A stretch of DNA of 12,332 bases from Alphaproteobacteria bacterium (GTDB lineage: Bacteria; Pseudomonadota; Alphaproteobacteria; UBA828), in the NCBI GenBank assembly GCA_029937205.1, contig JAPYQV010000014.1, positions 3,888 to 16,219 on the forward strand. The letters are read 5' to 3'. The stretch's first letter is position 1, and the number at the start of each line of letters is the position of its first letter. This document shows positions 2 through 9,362 of the stretch, one piece after another. The translations under genes were made by a program, and so were the position numbers. The notes below the pieces were generated by a model. The model searched no databases and was not told the origin of the DNA. It was given only the letters and a program-made list of their open reading frames with translations.

Positions 2-1351
2 GATAGAGACGAGCGGGAGGAAAACGCGATCGGCATCGATAGCAATTCCCTGGCTGCGCGTGACGCCAATACCATTGCGCAAATTCAGACATTGCGTTTC
101 AACCCGCTTGCGGCAACTGGCGGCAGCGGCTCCTATCTGCTCGAGGAAGACGGCCGGCGGGTGCTTGACCTCTCCGCCTCGGCCACTGCCGCCAGCCTCG
201 GTTATGGCCATCCGGCAGTGGTCGATGCCATCACCAAAGCGGCAAGCGATATGGCCGGCGCCAGCCTGTTGATGATCCCGAATGAGCCGGCGACGGCACT
301 TGCCGAGAGCCTGTTGGCGGCAACGCCGGGCACAGGCGAGCGCCGCGTCTGGTTCGGCCACTCGGGTTCGGATGCCAATGATGCTGCCATGCGTGTGGCT
401 TCGGCAGCTACCGGGCGCGGCCGCTTTATCTCCTTTATCGGCTCCTATCACGGCTGTCTCGCCGGCTCCATGAGCATTTCGGGCCACACCGCCATGACCC
501 ACAGCCTGCCGCGCCCGGGCCTGGTTCTGTTGCCCTATCCGGACGCCTACCGGGCGAAATTCTCAGCCGACGATGTACTCGCCCTGCTCGACTATCAATT
601 CGAGACAACCTGTCCGCCCGAGCAGGTGGCGGCGATATTTATCGAGCCGATTCTCTCCGATGGCGGACTCATCGTGCCGCCTGACGGTTTTCTAAAAGCG
701 CTGCAAGAGCGCTGCCGCAAGCACGGCATTCTCGTGGTGCTGGACGAGGTCAAGGTTGGGCTCGGGCGTTCGGGCAAACTACACGCCTACCAACATGACG
801 GTCTCGAACCCGACATGATCGTGTTCGGCAAGGGTCTCGGCGGCGGATTGCCGATTTCGGCGATCATCGGCCCGGCCGCCATTCTGGATCACGCGCCGGC
901 ATTCGCCATGCAAACCACGGCGGGCAATCCGGTCTGCACGGCGGCTGGCCAGGCGGTGCTCGACACCATCATTGGCGAAAATCTAGCGGCCCATGCAGCG
1001 GCCATGGGTGCAAAGCTGAGCGCCGGATTTGCCGAGCTGGCGGAGCGTCACGAAATCATTGGCGATGTGCGCGGGCGTGGCCTCGCGCTCGGCGTGGACC
1101 TGGTTACCTCGCGTGAGACGCGTGCGCCGGTGGCCGCGGTGACAACCGCAAAAGTGATCTACCGCGCCTATGAATTGGGCGCAAATTTTCTCTATGTGGG
1201 CCTCGCCGCCAATGTGCTGGAAATCACGCCGCCGCTTAATGTGAGCGCGGCGGAGATTGAAGAAGGGCTCGATATTATCGATCGCGCATTGGCCGATGTT
1301 GCGCGCGGAATCGTCTCGGACGCAAGCGTCCAGGCATTCATGAATTGGTGA
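2..1351 (+). CDS. Class III (PLP-dependent) aminotransferase, 5' end outside or ambiguous
   Basis: This enzyme would move an amino group from an amine or omega-amino acid to a keto acid, using PLP in the cytoplasm. Numbering residues from the TTG at 92, visible features are a family-type N-terminus (RFNPLAATGGSGSYLLEEDG), the phosphate-binding stretch GHSGSDANDAAM (about 88-99), SYHG, the PLP-ring aspartate D218 in LDEVKVGLGRSG, and the Schiff-base lysine K247 in VFGKGLGGG (codon 830-832). The frame is open to the left edge and the upstream translation (NSLAARDANTIAQIQT) also looks like family N-terminus, so the TTG at 92, which has no ribosome site, is probably internal. No ATG or GTG lies in frame upstream within the window. 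It precedes the ABC importer by 225 bp on the same strand, so a link to the imported substrate is plausible but unproven. The substrate is unknown; GABA, putrescine or beta-alanine-type amines are typical for the family. Confidence 0.9.
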   Translation, partial: DRDEREENAIGIDSNSLAARDANTIAQIQTLRFNPLAATGGSGSYLLEEDGRRVLDLSASATAASLGYGHPAVVDAITKAASDMAGASLLMIPNEPATALAESLLAATPGTGERRVWFGHSGSDANDAAMRVASAATGRGRFISFIGSYHGCLAGSMSISGHTAMTHSLPRPGLVLLPYPDAYRAKFSADDVLALLDYQFETTCPPEQVAAIFIEPILSDGGLIVPPDGFLKALQERCRKHGILVVLDEVKVGLGRSGKLHAYQHDGLEPDMIVFGKGLGGGLPISAIIGPAAILDHAPAFAMQTTAGNPVCTAAGQAVLDTIIGENLAAHAAAMGAKLSAGFAELAERHEIIGDVRGRGLALGVDLVTSRETRAPVAAVTTAKVIYRAYELGANFLYVGLAANVLEITPPLNVSAAEIEEGLDIIDRALADVARGIVSDASVQAFMNW

Positions 1352-1576: not shown

Positions 1577-2773
1577 ATGGAGAACGAAAAACTACTCAAA
1601 CAAATGGTCAATCATGACCCGATACGGGGCGCCGGAATGACCCGACGTAACGTGCTGAAGGGCATGGGCGCGGGTGCCGCTGTACTGGGCGCCGGGATGA
1701 CATTGCCCAAGCATTTGGCCGCAGCCGAGCGCGACCTGGCCATGCTCACCTGGGACGGCTATGTCGATCCGCGCGTGCTCGACGGCTTTACCGACCAGTA
1801 CGGCTCGGACATAAAATACGAATTGCACACATCCGATCCGGATTCGGTCAACAAGCTGCGTGCCGGCCAAACCGAGATTTGGGACATTATCAATCTCAAC
1901 AATCCCTGGGCGCGCGAGATCATGTGGCCGGATAATCTCATCGTTGAGCTCGACCGGGCGCGCTTCGAGCCCTATTTCGACAAGATGCTGCCGATGTTCA
2001 AGCCACCCTACAAATGGGCCATGAGCGTGGACGGACAGCACTTGCTCGGCGTCTGCCAACGCGTGGATACATTCGATTTCGTCGTCAACACCGACGTCAT
2101 TTCGGCTTCCATGGCGACCAACGAAGGCTGGGATATGTTCAACAATCCCGACATGAAGGGCCGCTACGGCATTCTCGCCTACGACAATTGGAACATCATG
2201 CACATGTGCATGGGCGCCGGTCTCCATCCCTTCAAGATGAAAACCGATGCGCAAGTGGCTAAATTCGAGGAAACCGCACGGGCCTGGATTAATGGCGCCA
2301 AAATGATTTCTGACGATTTCGTCGGCATCAATTTGGCCTTGATCAACGGCGAAATCGATTTGTATTTCGGCGGCGGCACCTACACCGTCTCGGCGGCACG
2401 CTTGGATGGCCTCGACAATCTCTATGCCATCACGCCAGAGAGCGGACCTGCCGACGGCAAGGGCGGCATCAACTGGATTGAATTGAATTCGGTGGTCAAC
2501 AATCCGAATCTCCATTCCCAGGCGTTCGATTGGATGGAGTATATTTTGCAACCGGATACATCTTACTATGTCGGCACCGCCGGCGGCTTCCTGCTGCCGG
2601 TCGGCCAATTGTCCGATCCGGAAGTGCTGGCCAAATTCTCCAAGGAAGAGCTCAATTCCTTCCAGTGGGATGAATTCGATTACCGCATCGAGCATGCGGT
2701 CGAATATGACGTGGTGCCTGACTATAACCGGCTCTACGACATCTACACGGCGGCGCTGCGGGAAAAAACTTAA
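1577..2773 (+). CDS. Periplasmic substrate-binding protein of a polyamine-type (PotD/PotF-like) ABC importer
   Basis: This 398-aa protein should capture a small cationic or amide solute in the periplasm and deliver it to the permeases encoded downstream. Residues 22-50 form a twin-arginine signal: TRRNVLKG (R23, R24), a glycine/alanine-rich hydrophobic stretch, and an AAA site near 48-50. The mature start (AMLTWDGYVDPRVLDGFTDQYG) matches the opening strand of PotD/PotF-type proteins, and later GVCQRVDTFDFVVNTDV occupies the place of the usual GVPYMWGT...YN segment. That pocket-side segment is divergent, so the ligand may not be a plain polyamine. The ATG at 1577 is chosen because a perfect AGGAGG (1566-1571) lies 5 bases upstream; M21 is less well placed. 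The 225-bp leader (1352-1576) shows no convincing promoter, terminator or riboswitch. Family certain, ligand unknown. Confidence 0.9.
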   Translation: MENEKLLKQMVNHDPIRGAGMTRRNVLKGMGAGAAVLGAGMTLPKHLAAAERDLAMLTWDGYVDPRVLDGFTDQYGSDIKYELHTSDPDSVNKLRAGQTEIWDIINLNNPWAREIMWPDNLIVELDRARFEPYFDKMLPMFKPPYKWAMSVDGQHLLGVCQRVDTFDFVVNTDVISASMATNEGWDMFNNPDMKGRYGILAYDNWNIMHMCMGAGLHPFKMKTDAQVAKFEETARAWINGAKMISDDFVGINLALINGEIDLYFGGGTYTVSAARLDGLDNLYAITPESGPADGKGGINWIELNSVVNNPNLHSQAFDWMEYILQPDTSYYVGTAGGFLLPVGQLSDPEVLAKFSKEELNSFQWDEFDYRIEHAVEYDVVPDYNRLYDIYTAALREKT

Positions 2774-2811
2774 CTTCCGAAGGCCAAGAGTTGGTGATTG
2801 GAATAAAGTGA

Positions 2812-2844
2812 TGAGCCGCGCGGATATAATGTCCGCGCGGCTCA
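2812..2844 (+). repeat. Perfect 13-bp intercistronic hairpin between the binding-protein and ATPase genes
   Basis: TGAGCCGCGCGGA (2812-2824) and TCCGCGCGGCTCA (2832-2844) are exact reverse complements separated by a 7-base loop (TATAATG). The stem is very GC-rich, but no T-run follows on either strand, so it is not a canonical intrinsic terminator. It starts 38 bp after the binding-protein stop. Hairpins here in import operons commonly protect the upstream mRNA or partly attenuate transcription so that the binding protein is made in excess; that role is inferred. The TATAAT in the loop looks like a -10 box but has no convincing -35 partner. Confidence 0.85.
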
Positions 2845-2943
2845 ATTCCCCGCATCAATTGAATAATTTAATAATATACTGCGCGGATGTGCCGGTCGTC
2901 TTGGCCATCCGCAATCATGACATCATGATCGGGAGCTGAGCAC

Positions 2944-4011
2944 ATGGGCGACGTCGCCCCTATTCTTGAAATTAAAAATATCACAAAGCAATTCGGCAAA
3001 CTTTTAGCCGTCAACAATGTGTCGCTTGACGTCATCGACGGCGAATTCTTCACCATTGTCGGACCCTCTGGCAGCGGCAAGACAACATTGCTGCGCATGT
3101 TGGCGGGATTGGAAAAACCAAGTGGCGGCGATATCATATTGCGCGGCAACCGGGTCAATGATGTGCCAGCCAACAAGCGTCCCACCTGCATGGTGTTTCA
3201 GTCCCTGGCGCTGTTTAACCACCGCACTGTCGGACAAAACATCGAATTTTCGCTCAAGATGCGCGGCGTCTCGCGCGCCGATCGGCGCATCCGCGCCACG
3301 GAATTGATGAAAATCGTGCGCCTGCCGGAAGATTATTACGGCAAAGGCGTTACCAAATGCTCCGGCGGCGAACGCCAACGTGTGGCCCTCGCCCGCGCGC
3401 TTGCTTCCGACCCGGACATCATGTTCTTCGACGAGCCGCTCTCCGCTATCGACTACCAACTGCGCAAACATCTCGAAGTGGAATTGAAGGACCTGCACCG
3501 GGAAACCGGCAAGACCTTCATGTACATCACCCATTCGCTCGAGGAAGCGATGGTGATGAGCGACCGCATCGGCATCATGCAGGCCGGCCATTTGATCCAG
3601 GTTGGCACGCCCGACGAAATTTATACCCGCCCGCTCAACAAATTCGTTTCCGAGTTCATGGGCGAGGTTAATACGCTGAGTATACGGCGCACGTCGCCAG
3701 GCAAATTTGAGTGCGACGAGCTCGGCGCACAGTTCGCGGGACCGGCGGATACCGGTGGTTCGGAAACCGGCTATCTTGTCATCCGCCCAGAATCCATGCG
3801 CTTTCTAAGCGACCCGTCGGAAGCGGAAAATCATGTCAAAGGCACGCTCTTCAACGAGTATGCCATGGGCTCCCGGGTGCAGTATCACGTGCGCGCCGGC
3901 GGCTATATGCTGGTGGTGGAAAAGCTTCGCGAACAAGCCTATCAAGGCAGCATCGATGACGACGTGCTCGTTGGCTGGGACGTCAAGGACAGTGTTTTGG
4001 TAAGCGACTGA
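2944..4011 (+). CDS. ABC transporter ATP-binding protein (PotA-like)
   Basis: This 355-aa cytoplasmic ATPase powers the importer. In order: Walker A GPSGSGKTT (40-48), a Q-loop in VFQSLALF, signature CSGGERQRVALARAL (from 139), Walker B IMFFDEP (D163, E164), D-loop SAID, and H-loop histidine H197 in YITHS. Residues from about 240 to 355 form the regulatory TOBE-like domain usual for the MalK/PotA/FbpC group. The signature reads CSGGE in place of the common LSGGQ. The ATG has GGGAG (2931-2935) 8 bases upstream. Its TGA is followed by a single base and then the ATG of the first permease, so the two are probably translationally coupled. Family certain; substrate follows the operon and is not shown by this subunit. 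Confidence 0.93.
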   Translation: MGDVAPILEIKNITKQFGKLLAVNNVSLDVIDGEFFTIVGPSGSGKTTLLRMLAGLEKPSGGDIILRGNRVNDVPANKRPTCMVFQSLALFNHRTVGQNIEFSLKMRGVSRADRRIRATELMKIVRLPEDYYGKGVTKCSGGERQRVALARALASDPDIMFFDEPLSAIDYQLRKHLEVELKDLHRETGKTFMYITHSLEEAMVMSDRIGIMQAGHLIQVGTPDEIYTRPLNKFVSEFMGEVNTLSIRRTSPGKFECDELGAQFAGPADTGGSETGYLVIRPESMRFLSDPSEAENHVKGTLFNEYAMGSRVQYHVRAGGYMLVVEKLREQAYQGSIDDDVLVGWDVKDSVLVSD

Positions 4012-4012
4012 G

Positions 4013-4930
4013 ATGGCGACGATTATAGACAAATCACCACCGCCAGCGCTGCCGCAACCCACCACTCTGCAATCTATCGGCCTGTGGCTGCGCCAGCCCG
4101 GCTTCCTCACCGCGACTCCGATCCTCCTGTTGTTTCTGGCCGGCTTTGTTGGCCCGCTGGTTATCGTGCTCGGCTTCAGCTTCCTGCCCGAACGCACCTT
4201 CGGCTTTCATGGCGAATGGACGGTTGATAATTACGTCCACATCCTCACAGAGAGTTATTACATCTCCTTCGTGTGGTCGTTCGGCCTCGCCACGGCGACG
4301 GTGACGTGCTGCCTGTTGATCTCCTATCCGGTGTCGTATGGCCTGGCCAAAGTATTTGGCCGTTGGACAGCGCCGATTATGCTGCTCCTGGTGATTCCGC
4401 TCTTCGTCTCCGAAAATGTGCGCCTGTTCGGTTGGTATTTGCTGCTCCTGAAGGGCGGCGGCATTTTCGCCGGAACCACCAATTATCTGTTTGGCCTCGA
4501 TACCGGGACGCTGCTCTATTCAAACGGCACCACTCTGATGGGCATGGTCTATGTCTATTTGCCCTACACCTTGTTCCCGACCACCCTCGGCCTTTCTCTG
4601 GTGCCCAAGGACCAGGTTGACGCCGCCGGCGACCTCGGCGCCAATCGCTGGCAGGTCTTCCGCGAGGTCGAACTGCCGATCGCCATGCCCGGTATCCTGA
4701 TCGGCTCGCTGTTGACATTCGTGCTCGCCGTCGGCGCCATTTCGGAGGCCAAGGTGCTCGGCGGCGCCAATACCGTCGTCATCTCCCATGCCATCCAGCA
4801 TGAATTTACCTATGCGCAGAACTGGCCGTTGGGTTCCTCGATATCGATGTTTGCCATCGCCATCACCGGCATTCTGGTGATTTATGTGATGGGTCGCCTC
4901 GACCTCGACAGATTGTTGGGGAGGCGCTGA
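4013..4930 (+). CDS. ABC transporter permease, PotB-like (first permease)
   Basis: This 305-aa inner-membrane protein forms half of the import channel. About six hydrophobic segments can be seen (roughly residues 31-57, 86-112, 119-145, 172-196, 226-250 and 274-294). The cytoplasmic EAA coupling loop that docks on the ATPase reads DAAGDLGANRWQVFREVELP from residue 203. It starts one base after the ATPase stop with no good ribosome site, consistent with coupled translation, and ends two bases before the second permease. Length and layout fit the PotB/HisM-type family. What passes through it cannot be deduced. Confidence 0.92.
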   Translation: MATIIDKSPPPALPQPTTLQSIGLWLRQPGFLTATPILLLFLAGFVGPLVIVLGFSFLPERTFGFHGEWTVDNYVHILTESYYISFVWSFGLATATVTCCLLISYPVSYGLAKVFGRWTAPIMLLLVIPLFVSENVRLFGWYLLLLKGGGIFAGTTNYLFGLDTGTLLYSNGTTLMGMVYVYLPYTLFPTTLGLSLVPKDQVDAAGDLGANRWQVFREVELPIAMPGILIGSLLTFVLAVGAISEAKVLGGANTVVISHAIQHEFTYAQNWPLGSSISMFAIAITGILVIYVMGRLDLDRLLGRR

Positions 4931-4932
4931 CC

Positions 4933-5742
4933 ATGGAGAGCCGAAGCAAATGCTGGACCCATGCGCTGATCGGCGTTTGGACCGGAGTCGTATTACTGTT
5001 TTTCTTTGTTCCCATCGCCGCGGTCATCATTTCGTCGTTCGGAAAGTCGCGCTATTTCCGCTTCCCGGTCAAATCTTGGAGCATGAAATGGTACGACCAA
5101 ACGATCAACGCCAATTTGACCGAAAACCTTCACCTGACTTCGCTTTATGTCGCTGGCTGCGTCGCCGCGATTGCCTTGGTGCTGGGCTTTTTCGGCGCCC
5201 TCGCCTTCGCCCGTTATGATTGGAAGGGGCGCATTTTCTATCAGCGCCTGATCATGCTGCCGATCTTCTTTCCCCAGGCCGTGCTCGGCCTCGCCCTTCT
5301 CCTATGGTTCACCTATATCGGCGTGCTGCCGACCTGGGAGGCGGCCGTCTTTGCCCATCTGGTGTGGATTGCGCCGATCGTCACACTGGTTATCTCGATC
5401 CAGGTTTACGGCTTCGATGTCAGCCAGGAAGAGGCGGCATATGATCTCGGCGCCAACCGTTGGCAGGTTTTCTGCGAAGTCACCATGCCGGCGCTGGCGC
5501 CCGGACTCTTTTCCGGCGGGCTCTTCGCCTTCCTGCTGTCATGGGGCAATTTCTCGCTCTCAACCTACACAACAGGTGCCGACAGCACCGTGACAGAATG
5601 GCTCTACACCAAGATGAGCAGCGGCTACACGCCGATGATTCCGACCATGGGCGCGTTCTCTGTTTATGGCTCCGTGATCATTCTCTTCATGGGCTATATT
5701 TTCCTCATCACGCAGCGGAAACGGGCGGCAAAACGCGCCTGA
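4933..5742 (+). CDS. ABC transporter permease, PotC-like (second permease)
   Basis: This 269-aa inner-membrane protein completes the permease pair. About six hydrophobic segments lie near residues 11-36, 68-93, 104-128, 136-158, 188-212 and 237-260. The EAA loop EEAAYDLGANRWQVFCEVTMP (from residue 166) parallels that of the first permease, as expected for a PotB/PotC heterodimer. A GGGGAGG ribosome site (4918-4924) lies inside the end of the preceding gene, 8 bases before the ATG. The next gene begins 80 bp further on, on the same strand, with no terminator between, so the importer is probably co-transcribed with the dimethylformamidase-like genes. Confidence 0.92.
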   Translation: MESRSKCWTHALIGVWTGVVLLFFFVPIAAVIISSFGKSRYFRFPVKSWSMKWYDQTINANLTENLHLTSLYVAGCVAAIALVLGFFGALAFARYDWKGRIFYQRLIMLPIFFPQAVLGLALLLWFTYIGVLPTWEAAVFAHLVWIAPIVTLVISIQVYGFDVSQEEAAYDLGANRWQVFCEVTMPALAPGLFSGGLFAFLLSWGNFSLSTYTTGADSTVTEWLYTKMSSGYTPMIPTMGAFSVYGSVIILFMGYIFLITQRKRAAKRA

Positions 5743-5822
5743 GGAGTCTGGTAGTATCCGGGTTATTTCTAATGCTATGCTGATCGGCGAAATAAGCCGT
5801 AAAAGAAACGGGAGACGAAAAT

Positions 5823-6113
5823 ATGCCTAGCGAAGCAGAAAGCCGCGCGATTGAGGAATTCCGCAAGACACCCATCGGCCACCACAGCACCGATTTGCAA
5901 GTGATTCTCAATGAGCTTCGCGCGCTGCCCATGGAAGACAAACATTGCCTGGTTTGCACCAAGGCCAACCGGGAATGGCAACTGGCCAAAACCACCGGCG
6001 TCCGCGGCAAGCCGATCAAAATGCTGAGCAAGAAATTCACAAATCTCGAAGACGCCGAATGGTACGTATTCAAGCAGCGCTGGAAGCAGCTCAGAGGCGA
6101 GACCCTGCGTTAG
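5823..6113 (+). CDS. Small subunit of a dimethylformamidase-like amidohydrolase (DmfA1-like, short form)
   Basis: This 96-aa charged soluble protein has no signal peptide or membrane segment. The central and C-terminal parts (TPIGHHSTDLQVILNELRAL, then ANREWQLAKTTG, then a helix KKFTNLEDAEWYVFKQRWKQLR) follow the layout I recall for the light chain of N,N-dimethylformamidase, which packs against the large subunit. The gene lies 76 bp before the large-subunit gene, the order known for dmfA1-dmfA2. Known light chains are about 130 aa, so some 35 N-terminal residues are absent. An in-frame stop at 5793-5795 rules out an upstream extension. The ATG has GGGAGA 8 bases upstream. It has two cysteines (C42, C45) in a CLVC pair. 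Assignment rests on gene context and recalled similarity, not a search. Confidence 0.7.
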   Translation: MPSEAESRAIEEFRKTPIGHHSTDLQVILNELRALPMEDKHCLVCTKANREWQLAKTTGVRGKPIKMLSKKFTNLEDAEWYVFKQRWKQLRGETLR

Positions 6114-6146
6114 CGCTTTTTCCGACCACATTACAAATATAACGGT

Positions 6147-6162
6147 GCCCCCCAGGCGGGGC
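6147..6162 (+). other. Short GC-rich inverted repeat between the two enzyme-subunit genes
   Basis: GCCCC (6147-6151) and GGGGC (6158-6162) can pair around a 6-base loop in the 76-bp gap between the subunit genes. It could tune the subunit ratio, but a 5-bp stem in GC-rich DNA can easily arise by chance. Confidence 0.3.
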
Positions 6163-6173
6163 CTGCAATCGTC

Positions 6174-6179
6174 AGGGGA
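6174..6179 (+). promoter_or_regulatory. Ribosome binding site that fixes the large-subunit start
   Basis: AGGGGA lies 10 bases before the ATG at 6190, which is followed by a second ATG at 6193. The alternative GTG at 6145 has no such site upstream, so 6190 is preferred. Confidence 0.6.
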
Positions 6180-6189
6180 CGAAATCACT

Positions 6190-8442
6190 ATGATGAAAAT
6201 CACCGGCTATGCCGACAAAATCAGCGCTGCGCCCGGAGAGACTATTAAGTTCATGGTCAATTCCGAGGCCGGCAAGCGCTACCGTGCCGATATCGTCCGC
6301 GTCATTTGCGGCGATGAAAACCCGGATGGCCCGGGCTATCAGGAAAAAGTCGTCAAGACCGCCACCAACGGCACTTATAAGAGCCGCAAACAAGTAATCC
6401 ATGCCGGCTCGTTTGTTGAAATCGGCGCCAGCGACATGCTCGACGGCCTCGAGAGCTTCACCATGCAGGCCTTCATCTGGCCGACCACGCCGACCATCGG
6501 CACCCAGGCCATTATTTCCAAGTGGCGCGACAGCGACAAGTGCGGCGCGGCGCTGATCATCACCAAGGAAAACGGCTCAATCGCGCTCTGCCTCGGCAAT
6601 GGCAAAGGCAAGGTCGAAACCGTCCACACCGGCAAGCCCCTGGTCGCGCATGAATGGTATTTCGTCGCCGCCAGCTACGACGCCAAGACCAAGGCAATCA
6701 CCTTGGTGCAAGAGCCCTTGCATGGTTATGCGACAAAGAGCGACCGCGCCGTGGTGCGGCGGAAATCCACCGTCGGCAAAGTACCCGGCCACAATATGCC
6801 GCTCATCATGGGCGGCTATTTTAAGACAATCGACAAGGGCCGCACGGTTTGCGGCGGCCATTACAATGGCAAGATCGACAGCCCGCGCATCGCCAACCGT
6901 GTATTGAGCGCGACGGAAATGGAAGCCCTGAAAACCTGGCCGGTCAATACCGAGCTGACCAATTCAGTCATCGGCGCGTGGGACTTCAGCGCCGACATCC
7001 CGGGTCTGACCGTCTGCGACCTGTCCGCCAACCTGCTGCACGGCGAGATCGTCAATCTGCCGGCGCGCGCCATGACCGGCTGGAACTGGACCGGCGAGGA
7101 GATGAACTGGACCAACGCGCCGGATCAATATGGCGCCATTCATTTCCATGACGACGACATTTACGATGCCGGCTGGGAAGTGGATTTCGAACTGACCATT
7201 CCGAAAGGCCTGAAAAGCGGCGTCTACGCGGCCCGCTTGCGCGCCGGCGACCATGAAGACCATATCCCCTTCGCGGTACGCGCGCCGCGCGGCAAGCCGA
7301 CCGCCAAAGTGCTCTATCTCATGCCGAGCGCGAGCTACCAGGCTTATGCCAACGAACATATGAATACTGATTCTCCGATTGGTCAGCTCCTCGCCGGGCG
7401 CCTGATACAGCTCGACAAATTTAATATTTTTCTTAACGAGCACCGCGAATATGGCGGCTCGTGCTACGACGTGCATTCCGACGGTTCGGGCATCTGCTAT
7501 TCCTCACGCCTGCGCCCAATCCTCAACATGCGGCCCAAGCACCGCATGTGGATCGGCGCCACGGAATCGACGCTCTGGCAGTTCAACGCCGATACCCATA
7601 TCACCGATTGGCTTGAGGCCATGAACATCGACTATGACGTGATCAGCGATGAGGACCTGCATTATGAAGGGCTCTCGGCGATCGAGGATTACAGCGTCGT
7701 GGTCAGCAGCACCCATCCGGAATATCACTCGGTCGAAATGTGGGACGCCATGGACGCCTATCAGCGGCGCGGCGGACGGTTGATGTATCTCGGCGCCAAT
7801 GGCTGGTATTGGCGCATCCAATATCACAGCGATGTGCCGGGCGTGATCGAAGTCAGGCGCAACGAGGACGGCATCCGCACTTGGGAAGCGCGCACGGGCG
7901 AATATTATTTCAGCTTCTCCGGCGAATATGGCGGCCTTTGGCGGCGTAATGGACGCGCGCCCCAGAAGCTTCTCGGGGTCGGCTTTACCGCCCAGGGCTT
8001 CGATATCTCGTCCTATTACTTGCGCAATCCCGACAGCCACAAAGCGAAGGTCAAATTCATCTTCGAGGGCATCGGCAAGGACGAGAAAATCGGCGATTTT
8101 GGTCTCATTGGCAATGGTGCCGCCGGCCTCGAACTCGACCGCGCCGACCGCGCCCTCGGCACCCCGCCCGATGCATACGTCGTCGCCTCTTCCGTCGACC
8201 ACACCGACATCTACCTCGTGGTGTGCGAGGAAATGCTGGTCTCGACACCAGGCGTCGGCGGCCACGAGAACGAGTTGGTGCGGGCCGATATCACTTTTCA
8301 TGAGACGCAAAATGGCGGCGCCGTGTGGTCGACCGGATCGATTGCCTGGGCCGGCAGCCTGGCTCATAACAACTACAAGAACAACATCTCACGCATGACC
8401 AAAAACGTGCTCAAACGCTTCATCAATCCGAAGCCGTTCTAA
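6190..8442 (+). CDS. Large (catalytic) subunit of a dimethylformamidase-like iron amidohydrolase (DmfA2-like)
   Basis: The family hydrolyses N-substituted formamides to formate plus amine with a mononuclear iron held by two tyrosines and a glutamate. At 750 aa it matches the family's roughly 760 aa. A LamG/concanavalin-like domain spans about residues 75-270 (SFTMQAFIWPTT, IISKW, HEWYFVAASYD). A glutaminase-like catalytic domain follows from about 370. From memory of the Paracoccus enzyme (Y399, Y440, E521, with H519, N547 and E657 nearby), the counterparts here would be Y386 in SYQAYAN, Y426 in SCYDVHS, H509 and E511 in THPEYHS, N537 in YLGANGWYWR, and E648 in AAGLELDR. The spacing fits with small gaps only, so the active site appears complete. 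No signal peptide is present, so it is cytoplasmic. It is the last gene of the block, ahead of a terminator. Family placement is firm; dimethylformamide itself as substrate is doubtful given the polyamine-type importer. Confidence 0.85.
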   Translation: MMKITGYADKISAAPGETIKFMVNSEAGKRYRADIVRVICGDENPDGPGYQEKVVKTATNGTYKSRKQVIHAGSFVEIGASDMLDGLESFTMQAFIWPTTPTIGTQAIISKWRDSDKCGAALIITKENGSIALCLGNGKGKVETVHTGKPLVAHEWYFVAASYDAKTKAITLVQEPLHGYATKSDRAVVRRKSTVGKVPGHNMPLIMGGYFKTIDKGRTVCGGHYNGKIDSPRIANRVLSATEMEALKTWPVNTELTNSVIGAWDFSADIPGLTVCDLSANLLHGEIVNLPARAMTGWNWTGEEMNWTNAPDQYGAIHFHDDDIYDAGWEVDFELTIPKGLKSGVYAARLRAGDHEDHIPFAVRAPRGKPTAKVLYLMPSASYQAYANEHMNTDSPIGQLLAGRLIQLDKFNIFLNEHREYGGSCYDVHSDGSGICYSSRLRPILNMRPKHRMWIGATESTLWQFNADTHITDWLEAMNIDYDVISDEDLHYEGLSAIEDYSVVVSSTHPEYHSVEMWDAMDAYQRRGGRLMYLGANGWYWRIQYHSDVPGVIEVRRNEDGIRTWEARTGEYYFSFSGEYGGLWRRNGRAPQKLLGVGFTAQGFDISSYYLRNPDSHKAKVKFIFEGIGKDEKIGDFGLIGNGAAGLELDRADRALGTPPDAYVVASSVDHTDIYLVVCEEMLVSTPGVGGHENELVRADITFHETQNGGAVWSTGSIAWAGSLAHNNYKNNISRMTKNVLKRFINPKPF

Positions 8443-8467: not shown

Positions 8468-8496
8468 AGGCCGGCCGGCAAGCCGGCCTATTTTTT
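8468..8496 (+). terminator. Intrinsic terminator of the importer/amidohydrolase block
   Basis: AGGCCGGC (8468-8475) pairs exactly with GCCGGCCT (8482-8489) around a 6-base loop and is followed by TTTTTT (8491-8496). It begins 25 bp after the large-subunit stop. The T-run exists only in the + direction. Confidence 0.88.
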
Positions 8497-8574
8497 GTGT
8501 GGCCCTCAATCGCCGGGCGCGCGCATCCGCGCGCTTGGCTACCTCGTATTAACTCGGGCGGGCAGTCGCCCTTG

Positions 8575-8597
8575 CCGGAATGCCGGCCGCATTCCGG
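8575..8597 (-). other. Perfect 9-bp hairpin downstream of the GntR gene
   Basis: CCGGAATGC (8575-8583) and GCATTCCGG (8589-8597) pair around a 5-base loop, 24 bp beyond the stop of the regulator gene on the - strand. No T-run follows in that direction. It may be a transcript 3'-end structure or a factor-dependent stop, lying in the 179-bp convergent gap. Confidence 0.5.
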
Positions 8598-8621
8598 TGG
8601 GTGGTGCCGTTTACAATAATT

Positions 8622-9341
8622 TTATGAATCGCCGGCGCGGGTGCGGTATTGGGCGAACTCTCGCAGGACGAAATCGAAATGGGCGTCCATGGCTTCGGCG
8701 GCCGCCTTTGGCTGATGATTACGGATCGCTTCAAAAATGCGGACGTGGAGTTCGAACATGCCGTCGCGGTAATGATCGCTTGCCATCAGCCGTGAGGCCA
8801 GGAGGCGCGAGGCCTTGGCCAGCGCGCCATGCAGCGTCGCCATCAAATGGGTCAGGACGGTGTTGCCGGCCGCCTTGGCGATGGCGCAATGAAAGCGCAC
8901 ATCGGCGTCGTCTCCGGTGCCGCCAGCAGCCACATCGCGCTCTATTTCGGCGAAAATCGTGGCCAAATCCGCAATATCCGCTGGGCTGGCATATTCGGCC
9001 GCGAGATAGGCCGAGTGATGTTCGAGCACGCGGCGCAGGTCGAGGAGTTCATTGACGCGGTCAAAATCCGTGCCGATCAGGCGCTCGAAGGAATTGCTCA
9101 GGCCGTCGGTGGAAGCGGCGCGGACAAAGAGGCCGCGGCGCGGGCGAACTTCGATCAGCCCCTCGCCTTCCAAACGCTTGACCGCCTCGCGCAGCGCCGG
9201 GCGGCTGATGGCCAGTCGCGCGGCCAGGGCTCGCTCGCTCGGCAGACGCTCGCCGGGCGCCCATTTGCCGCCGGCTATGCCTTCGCGCAGACGCTCAAAA
9301 GTGGCCTCGCCAAGACTGCCGCGTAATGGTTGCACATCCAT
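8622..9341 (-). CDS. GntR-family transcriptional regulator, FadR subfamily with FCD ligand domain
   Basis: This 239-aa protein is a DNA-binding regulator, usually a repressor released by a small carboxylate or related ligand. The N-terminal winged helix-turn-helix covers about residues 8-73 (GERLPSERALAARLAISRPALREAVKRLEGEGLIEVRPRRGLFV). The C-terminal all-helical FCD domain carries the expected metal and ligand residues D147 and H151 (DVRFH), H199 (FELHV) and H221 (DAHF). The ATG at 9341 is chosen because AAGGAG sits 6 bases upstream; a TTG at 9362 has no support. It lies 89 bp downstream of the CocE-like hydrolase gene on the same strand. A FadR-type palindrome at 9363-9375 overlaps its predicted promoter, implying autoregulation. 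A second copy in the divergent gap suggests control of the neighbouring genes. The ligand is unknown. Confidence 0.92.
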   Translation of the reverse strand: MDVQPLRGSLGEATFERLREGIAGGKWAPGERLPSERALAARLAISRPALREAVKRLEGEGLIEVRPRRGLFVRAASTDGLSNSFERLIGTDFDRVNELLDLRRVLEHHSAYLAAEYASPADIADLATIFAEIERDVAAGGTGDDADVRFHCAIAKAAGNTVLTHLMATLHGALAKASRLLASRLMASDHYRDGMFELHVRIFEAIRNHQPKAAAEAMDAHFDFVLREFAQYRTRAGDS

Positions 9342-9347
9342 GACCCG

Positions 9348-9353
9348 CTCCTT
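9348..9353 (-). promoter_or_regulatory. Ribosome binding site of the GntR gene
   Basis: On the - strand AAGGAG lies 6 bases before the ATG at 9341 and selects that start over the TTG at 9362, which lies upstream of this site. Confidence 0.7.
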
Positions 9354-9362
9354 TGACCGCAA

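What the first reader, a model, noticed from the sequence alone, without database searches (positions are those of the whole stretch)
1577..8442. Dimethylformamidase-like iron amidohydrolase with its own polyamine-type importer and a nearby aminotransferase
The sequence shows a contiguous same-strand set: class III aminotransferase, full PotD/A/B/C-like importer, small and large amidohydrolase subunits, then a terminator. Known dimethylformamidases act on a small neutral amide that needs no such importer. The arrangement suggests uptake of a larger N-acyl or N-formyl amine, amide cleavage by the Tyr2-Glu iron site, and transamination of the freed amine. This would be a pathway, and a substrate for the family, that I do not know to be described.
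Basis: partly seen in the sequence, partly recalled or inferred. Interest (0 to 1): 0.75.

Follow-up and report, generated by a model that had tools for sequence, protein, structure and literature searches.

The report
Importer-linked DMFase-family amidase with racemase
Uncultured marine bacteria carry a conserved set of genes that appears to import an unknown amine-bearing amide, interconvert its mirror-image forms with a racemase (not an aminotransferase, as first read) and cut it with an iron enzyme related to dimethylformamidase; in other bacteria the small part of that kind of enzyme is fused to an importer protein.

Summary
The gene set is real: PotD/A/B/C-like importer, small subunit, large subunit and terminator on one strand. 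The large subunit keeps all DMFase iron ligands; the small ORF is a true DMFase small-subunit relative. Importer-amidase linkage holds in all 6 genomes of the genus and reaches other genera, but is not a rule of the family (8 of 42 copies in a class-wide sample).

Two corrections. (1) The 'aminotransferase' is closest to amino acid amide racemase (6gio, 642 bits); 11 of 15 loci with its relatives elsewhere hold an amide-type hydrolase beside it. A genuine omega-type aminotransferase lies just upstream of the window. (2) A divergent second mgsABC/GS-like module follows the window while the genome also holds a canonical copy, so the freed amine is probably glutamylated and probably not methylamine.

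In other bacteria a DMFase small-subunit domain is fused to a Liv-type importer permease (470 proteins at E<=1e-3, 120 seen); in all 4 fusion loci read the large subunit follows. This supports transport coupling. Substrate unknown; no activity tested. New variant of a known kind.

The parts
2..1351 (+). RAC: class III PLP enzyme, amino-acid-amide-racemase-like; 5' end lost at a 10-N assembly gap
   Evidence: PF00202; best PDB 6gio amino acid amide racemase 642 bits
1577..2773 (+). PotD-like periplasmic binding protein with twin-arginine motif
   Evidence: profile best PDB matches are polyamine-binding proteins, E 3e-12; TAT_signal just under cut-off
2944..4011 (+). PotA-like importer ATPase
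   Evidence: PF00005, TOBE_2; PotA model 294 bits against cut-off 482
4013..4930 (+). PotB-like permease
   Evidence: PF00528; PotB model 138 bits against cut-off 348
4933..5742 (+). PotC-like permease
   Evidence: PF00528; PotC model 118 bits against cut-off 326
5823..6113 (+). small subunit, DMFase alpha-type (96 aa)
   Evidence: profile hits 6lvb_B at E 1.6e-15; hhalign 99.9%; AF2/Foldseek top hit 6lvb_B
6190..8442 (+). large subunit, DMFase beta-type iron amidohydrolase (750 aa; longer GTG ORF from 6145)
   Evidence: PF20254 323 bits; 6lvb 627 bits; Y399, Y440, H519, E521, N547 equivalents kept
8468..8496 (+). intrinsic-terminator-like hairpin with T tail
   Evidence: consensus scan, sequence
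8622..9362 (-). FadR/GntR-type regulator, divergent from the CocE-free operon end
   Evidence: PF00392 and PF07729; kept beside the locus in L029, L056, L059, L065
9431..11161 (-). CocE/NonD-family hydrolase
   Evidence: TIGR00976 480 bits; kept beside the locus in L029, L056, L059, L065
11391..11882 (+). DUF3830 protein
   Evidence: PF12903
11895..12332 (+). unknown protein; runs off the contig; by comparison with L056 it continues at the start of contig C270, where MgsA-, MgsB-, MgsC- and GS-like genes follow
   Evidence: no Pfam or NCBIfam match

Best explanation
An operon for uptake and breakdown of an amine-bearing, probably chiral amide. (1) The exported PotD-like protein and the PotA/B/C-like importer bring the amide in [genes shown; substrate inferred]. 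(2) The RAC enzyme interconverts mirror-image forms of an alpha-amino amide or lactam so that both can be used [inferred from its relatives and gene partners]. (3) The two-subunit iron amidohydrolase of the DMFase family hydrolyses the amide bond at a Tyr2-Glu iron site with a helper His [residues shown; activity inferred]. (4) The released amine is joined to glutamate by the GS-like ligase and the MgsABC-like synthase encoded just past the window, a route parallel to but separate from the methylamine N-methylglutamate pathway [genes shown; reaction inferred]. (5) The upstream omega-type aminotransferase and SDR process what remains [inferred]. A FadR-type regulator probably controls it [inferred].
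For: Active-site residues kept in 105 of 105 large subunits; small subunit identified three ways. Operon kept in 6 of 6 genomes of the genus, RAC in 5 of 6. Binding proteins of at least 78% identity in 13 of 60 genomes, all at this locus as far as the contigs reach. RAC closest to 6gio and beside amide-type hydrolases of four other families in 11 of 15 loci elsewhere. Mgs/GS-like module beside the locus in this genome and others, while a closer match to the methylamine genes sits on contig C332. Pot-type importer plus amidase recurs in a distant clade on two plasmids. Permease fused to a small-subunit domain, followed by a large subunit, in 4 of 4 fusion loci read.
Against: RAC is absent from the locus in G005 and from the g6 loci, so deracemisation is not essential to the core. 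Importer near the large subunit in only 8 of 42 copies of the class sample, and 5 of the 18 members of the window's own clade have no Pot genes on the contig. L129 and L132 show RAC without an amide hydrolase. The fusions involve Liv-type, not Pot-type, importers. The four 5m4x PDB entries among RAC's best matches are deposited as 'Aminotransferase class-III'. No activity was measured.
Confidence: 0.5

Rival explanations
1. One reading: an N-acyl or N-formyl (poly)amine is imported, deacylated by the iron enzyme, and the freed amine is transaminated by the neighbouring class III enzyme.
For: Pot-type importer; binding protein closest to polyamine-binding proteins; a real omega-type aminotransferase upstream; GS-like gene whose best NCBIfam model is gamma-glutamylputrescine synthetase, 212 bits against a cut-off of 650.
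Against: The gene named is racemase-like. All importer parts fall under the curated polyamine cut-offs. In the printed alignment the place of PotD E171 is N (PotD ligand residues recalled).
Confidence: 0.17
2. A scavenging system for small formamides (DMF, N-methylformamide) whose amine enters the N-methylglutamate pathway.
For: DMFase is the closest solved enzyme; MgsABC/GS-like genes next door; an MttB-family gene between PotC and the small subunit in L016 and L125.
Against: The genome has a separate, closer MgsABC/GmaS set; the GS-like gene matches plain glutamine synthetases (174 bits) better than methylamine ligases (124 and 115 bits); gate residue changed; the characterised pAMI2 operon has no importer in the 11 kb read.
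Confidence: 0.12
3. An N-acyl (beta-)amino acid acylase like 8huy, with RAC as a beta- or alpha-amino acid racemase or epimerase.
For: 8huy is a solved relative of the large subunit (512 bits); isoleucine 2-epimerases are next among RAC's matches (279 bits).
Against: DMFase scores higher (627 bits); RAC's best matches are amide and lactam racemases by wide margins.
Confidence: 0.13
4. The importer, racemase and amidase are neighbours without a shared function.
For: Importer linkage is not general in the family; RAC is missing from some loci.
Against: Order kept at 80-95% protein identity across the genus and, with rearrangement, across genera; independent recurrence on plasmids and permease fusions.
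Confidence: 0.04

Closest known systems
N,N-dimethylformamidase DmfA1/DmfA2 (PDB 6lvb; PMC7686228; Paracoccus pAMI2)
   Same: Small and large subunit in the same order, same iron ligands and helper His, same folds by sequence and model
   Different: V at the F693 gate; Pot importer, racemase and glutamylation genes around it; pAMI2 operon has none of these in the 11 kb read; substrate not known to be DMF
N-acetyl-(R)-beta-phenylalanine acylase (PDB 8huy)
   Same: Same large-subunit family; shows that bulkier acylated substrates occur in it
   Different: Less similar (512 against 627 bits)
Amino acid amide racemase 6gio / ACL racemase 2zuk
   Same: RAC aligns over 434 residues at 642 and 483 bits; PLP-lysine motif GKGLGGGLP shared in the printed alignment (role of the lysine recalled)
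   Different: Known from biotechnology as one half of an engineered racemase-amidase cascade (PMC7431475, passages); here in an operon with an importer and an unrelated amidase
PotABCD polyamine importers
   Same: Same component set
   Different: All parts score below the curated equivalog cut-offs; ligand site only partly kept
N-methylglutamate pathway mgsABC-gmaS (Paracoccus pAMI6; PMC4543880)
   Same: Same gene order MgsA-B-C-ligase
   Different: Only 31/33/54/28% identical, while another set in the same genome is 52/55/72/59%

Membership tests
DMFase structural family | DMFA2 C-terminal domain in the large subunit | tested here: met
   PF20254 323 bits, cut-off 27
DMFase structural family | Tyr, Tyr, Glu iron ligands and essential His | tested here: met
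   identical in 105 of 105 aligned large subunits, window included
DMFase structural family | separate small subunit of the DMFase alpha fold | tested here: met
DMFase (enzyme acting on DMF) | F693-type narrowing of the pocket | tested here: not met
   V at that column in the window; F in 37 of 105
DMFase (enzyme acting on DMF) | hydrolysis of DMF | not testable with these tools
   needs purified enzyme
PotABCD polyamine importer | curated polyamine models reached | tested here: not met
   all four parts below the equivalog cut-offs
PotABCD polyamine importer | PotD ligand residues | tested here: inconclusive
   W, Y, W and two acidic places kept, the place of E171 is N (PotD residue list recalled)
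Amino acid amide / ACL racemase | specific similarity to named racemases above aminotransferases | tested here: met
   642 and 483 bits against 6gio and 2zuk; 279 for epimerases; 239 for the first entry named only aminotransferase apart from the 5m4x group (501-505 bits), which is deposited as 'Aminotransferase class-III' and which I recall as ACL racemase
Amino acid amide / ACL racemase | racemisation of amino amides | not testable with these tools
   needs purified enzyme
N-methylglutamate pathway | MgsABC and GmaS orthologues | tested here: not met
   linked set is the more distant of two in the genome; GS-like under TIGR03105 cut-off in the L056 orthologue

The most novel reading that the evidence does not exclude
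DMFase-family amidohydrolases are transport-coupled enzymes: the small subunit doubles as a docking module for ABC importers (fused outright to Liv-type permeases in many bacteria), and in this marine lineage the coupled enzyme works with an amino-acid-amide racemase, a natural counterpart of the engineered racemase-plus-amidase cascade, feeding an unrecognised gamma-glutamyl / N-alkylglutamate route for an amine other than methylamine.
Probability: 0.3. Interest if true: 0.8.

Novelty: new variant of a known kind. Interest (0 to 1): 0.6.

Why it matters
Within what I saw, this iron amidohydrolase family is characterised on an industrial solvent and as one acylase; its natural substrates are open. 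A conserved importer, a racemase with a predictable substrate class and a paralogous glutamylation module narrow the search to a small, testable set of amides and amines, in a lineage whose genomes carry 1 to 9 family copies each. The permease/small-subunit fusion gives a concrete handle on how an importer might hand its cargo to an enzyme.

Tried and rejected
Ordinary aminotransferase for the class III gene in the window: rejected on PDB scores. Canonical N-methylglutamate pathway for the linked module: disfavoured by the second, closer copy in the same genome. Importer as a general feature of the family: rejected, 8 of 42 in the class sample. Homarine or trigonelline breakdown as the pathway: an idea only; paper searches gave nothing I used. 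The AlphaFold model of the binding protein was weak (mean pLDDT 67) and was not used. Rfam: no match at gathering threshold in the window. Literature on the 8huy enzyme: none found. One search's 'LivM' labels were partly caused by the small-subunit domain fused to my query and were replaced. The strain name DMFA1 is the only hint that that locus concerns DMF.
Full report
WHAT IS THERE. The window is contig C427, bases 3888-16219, of a 3.38-Mb draft genome. Named close relatives are marine MAGs: a Rhodospirillaceae bacterium, MarineAlpha10_Bin2 and an uncultured alphaproteobacterium, with large subunits 94, 90 and 87% identical. On the + strand lie a class III PLP gene (2-1351), a PotD-like binding protein, PotA-, PotB- and PotC-like genes 1-2 bp apart, a 96-aa ORF, the DMFA2 large subunit and a terminator-like hairpin at 8468. 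On the other strand follow a FadR-type regulator and a CocE/NonD hydrolase; then, on the + strand, DUF3830 and an unknown protein that runs off the contig end. Upstream, across a 10-N gap, are an omega-type aminotransferase (AT2) and an SDR, and on the other strand an Amidohydro_2 protein and an FGase fragment.

THE AMIDASE. The large subunit matches Paracoccus DMFase at 627 bits and N-acetyl-(R)-beta-phenylalanine acylase at 512 bits. I read parts 1 and 2 of 3 of PMC7686228: iron ligands Y399, Y440 and E521; H519 essential; F693 from the neighbouring subunit narrows the pocket; DMF, NMF, NEF and formamide are hydrolysed. In my alignment of 105 large subunits Y399, Y440, H519 and E521 are identical in 105 of 105; N547 is N in 77 and D in 28; the F693 column is F in 37 and V in 21, the window among the latter. 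The 96-aa ORF has no Pfam match and no significant single-sequence PDB match (best E 1.3), but a 36-sequence profile hits the DMFase small subunit at E 1.6e-15, profile-profile comparison with a set holding DmfA1 gives 99.9%, and the AF2 model (mean pLDDT 95) finds 6lvb_B first, E 3e-5.

THE 'AMINOTRANSFERASE'. Of 71 PDB sequences at E<=1e-40 (60 shown) the first is amino acid amide racemase 6gio (642 bits). Then come the 5m4x entries (501-505 bits), deposited as 'Aminotransferase class-III' and recalled by me, not by a call, as ACL racemase; ACL racemase 2zuk and 3dxw (483); isoleucine 2-epimerases (279); and then, at 239 bits, the first other entry named only an aminotransferase. Of 15 loci with RAC relatives outside the genus operon (11 from relatives, 4 plasmids), 11 have an amide-type hydrolase gene next to it: LamB/YcsF in L130, L131, L133; amidase PF01425 in L136, L137, L139; isochorismatase family in L134, L142; FGase with GS and isochorismatase family in L140, L141, L143. 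L128 is part of the split Pot operon of G007, L135 has GS adjacent, L129 and L132 have neither. Isochorismatase-family and FGase proteins are amide-type hydrolases by family only. PMC7431475 (passages) describes ACL racemase plus amidase as an engineered deracemisation cascade; here the pairing looks natural.

CONSERVATION. PF20254 occurs in all 21 relatives of the same family and order and in 8 of 38 others, one of them under the cut-off. In the genus, importer, small and large subunit are kept in 6 of 6 genomes, AT2 in 6 of 6, RAC in 5 of 6 (absent in G005), at 80-95% protein identity. Outside the genus, four g6 loci keep PotA-B-C with small and large (large 67-68%, importer parts 71-82%; the binding protein is on three of the four contigs) without RAC or AT2. 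Binding proteins of at least 78% identity occur in 13 of 60 genomes; 9 are on a contig with the large subunit, one with the small subunit at the contig end, and three contigs end inside the operon. Relatives of 47-58% occur in five further genomes, and the loci read for them (L120-L124) hold no large subunit. In a FastTree of 141 large subunits the window falls in an 18-member clade with support 0.999; 11 have Pot genes on the contig, 5 do not, 2 contigs are too short to tell.

NOT A FAMILY RULE. An importer permease lies on the same strand within 6.5 kb in 32 of 82 copies of the window's family and order, in 8 of 42 copies from the 190-genome class sample, and in 8 of 14 plasmid loci that I chose for variety. 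Flank bins of 0-3 kb hold a permease in 34 of 129 (family and order), 4 of 80 (class) and 7 of 27 (plasmids); bins of 3-6 kb in 23 of 111, 7 of 72 and 4 of 26; bins of 6-9 kb in 3 of 25 and 1 of 22. A small subunit lies upstream in 61 of 82, 22 of 42 and 13 of 14. The copies are related, so these are not independent counts. Importers differ in type: Pot, Liv, Rbs, PAAT, Opp, or AmiS/UreI channels. The pAMI2 DMFase operon has none in the 11 kb read. PMC4543880 (passages) says that a related pAMI5 locus was not found to be linked to DMF use; it has a dioxygenase and an AmiS/UreI gene.

TRANSPORT COUPLING. In Agrobacterium sp. 13-2099-1-2 the second Liv-type permease, next to the large subunit, is 552 aa long and ends in a DMFase small-subunit domain: residues 442-549 align with DmfA1 at 36% identity, E 4e-17 in a small set. 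A protein search scored on that domain, with candidate length set by the whole protein, gave 470 hits at E<=1e-3 among 799 candidates; all 120 listed carry PF26354 and PF02653, mostly 542-560 aa; the other 350 I did not see. The held Pfam copy lacks PF26354, so I do not know its name. I then read three more loci: in Aminobacter MDW-2, Ensifer adhaerens M8 and the unnamed G022 one frame carries both permease and small-subunit domain, and a large subunit follows, so 4 of 4 fusion loci read; Ensifer also has a separate small subunit in between, and Aminobacter a second large subunit. No fusion was found in the window's family and order or in the 43 class loci. I know of no paper on it: 13 papers in the library hold 'dimethylformamidase' (listing only), and one search listed five papers without the word.

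THE GLUTAMYLATION MODULE. The window's last ORF continues, judged by L056, at the start of contig C270, which then encodes MgsA-, MgsB-, MgsC- and GS-like genes. The same module lies beside the operon in L056, L059 and L065, and MgsA-C without the ligase in L025. In g6 genomes SoxB- and GS-like genes, in two cases with parts of MgsABC, lie divergently beside the binding protein (L015, L125, L126, L127). It also occurs in g2 members of the same clade (L021 without ligase, L023) and in a distant clade (L061, L068). Against the pAMI6 genes, which PMC4543880 calls mgsABC-gmaS, the genome's C332 set is 52/55/72/59% identical and the linked C270 set 31/33/54/28%. The L056 GS-like protein matches plain glutamine synthetases at 174 bits and methylamine ligases at 124 and 115. 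Because the methylamine route is already covered, the linked set more likely serves another amine; this is inference.

INDEPENDENT RECURRENCE. Pseudorhizobium flavum plasmid 2 carries GS, an S58-family peptidase, a Pot-type importer, small, large, GntR, D-amino acid dehydrogenase and alanine racemase. Rhodobacteraceae M382 has aldehyde dehydrogenase, the same kind of peptidase, Pot-type importer, small, large and GntR. Burkholderia vietnamiensis G4 has a PAAT importer, small, large, GntR, D-amino acid dehydrogenase and alanine racemase. With Rhizobium CB3171 they form a separate clade of four (support 1.0) whose gate residue is D. PMC6061476 (passages) reports spermidine/putrescine-type binding proteins induced during growth on caprolactam, a precedent for Pot-type importers near amide breakdown.

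JUDGEMENT. The best reading is an imported, probably chiral amine-bearing amide that is deracemised and hydrolysed, with the amine glutamylated. The substrate is unknown and no activity was tested.

Noticed in passing
window 8480-8615: A dispersed repeat of about 120 bp follows the terminator: 45 matches in this genome and 25, 46, 41, 10 and 0 in the five other genus genomes (capped scoring); no Rfam match in the window; folds as DNA with z -2.35.
   Followed up: partly
L107:6431-6973: The Halalkalicoccus DMFase-type small subunit is annotated 'inner-membrane translocator', probably because the same domain is fused to permeases elsewhere.
   Followed up: partly
L109:4760-6520: A flotillin gene stands directly before small and large subunit plus a Liv importer in Aminobacter niigataensis DMFA1. 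The SAR11 flotillin-associated rhodopsin cluster lists a flotillin, an inner membrane translocator, an N,N-dimethylformamidase and a PxpA-like protein (PMC10308929, section 14), so it may hold a related amide module.
   Followed up: partly
L035-L050 (Liv clade), e.g. L036:7633-8874: A Ring_hydroxyl_A oxygenase follows the large subunit in this clade (cluster 5, 14 of 92 loci; Pfam on L036), similar to the pAMI5 locus.
   Followed up: no
L016:11532-13058, L125:8428-9960: An MttB-family (trimethylamine methyltransferase) gene lies between PotC and the small subunit in two g6 loci.
   Followed up: no
L155: Three large-subunit copies in tandem with one small subunit in genome G183.
   Followed up: no
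L193:2223-4279: Ensifer adhaerens M8 has both a permease-fused small-subunit domain and a separate small subunit before one large subunit.
   Followed up: partly
alignment of large subunits, F693 column: The gate residue tracks gene context: V, I or L in the nine members of the window's clade that I printed with that column present, D in the four plasmid loci L108, L110, L112, L119, F in pAMI2 DMFase and in L043/L111.
   Followed up: partly
L106:6096-6359: PLSDB labels part of an IS3-family transposase on pAMI2 as AAK-1 beta-lactamase; it looks like an annotation artefact.
   Followed up: no
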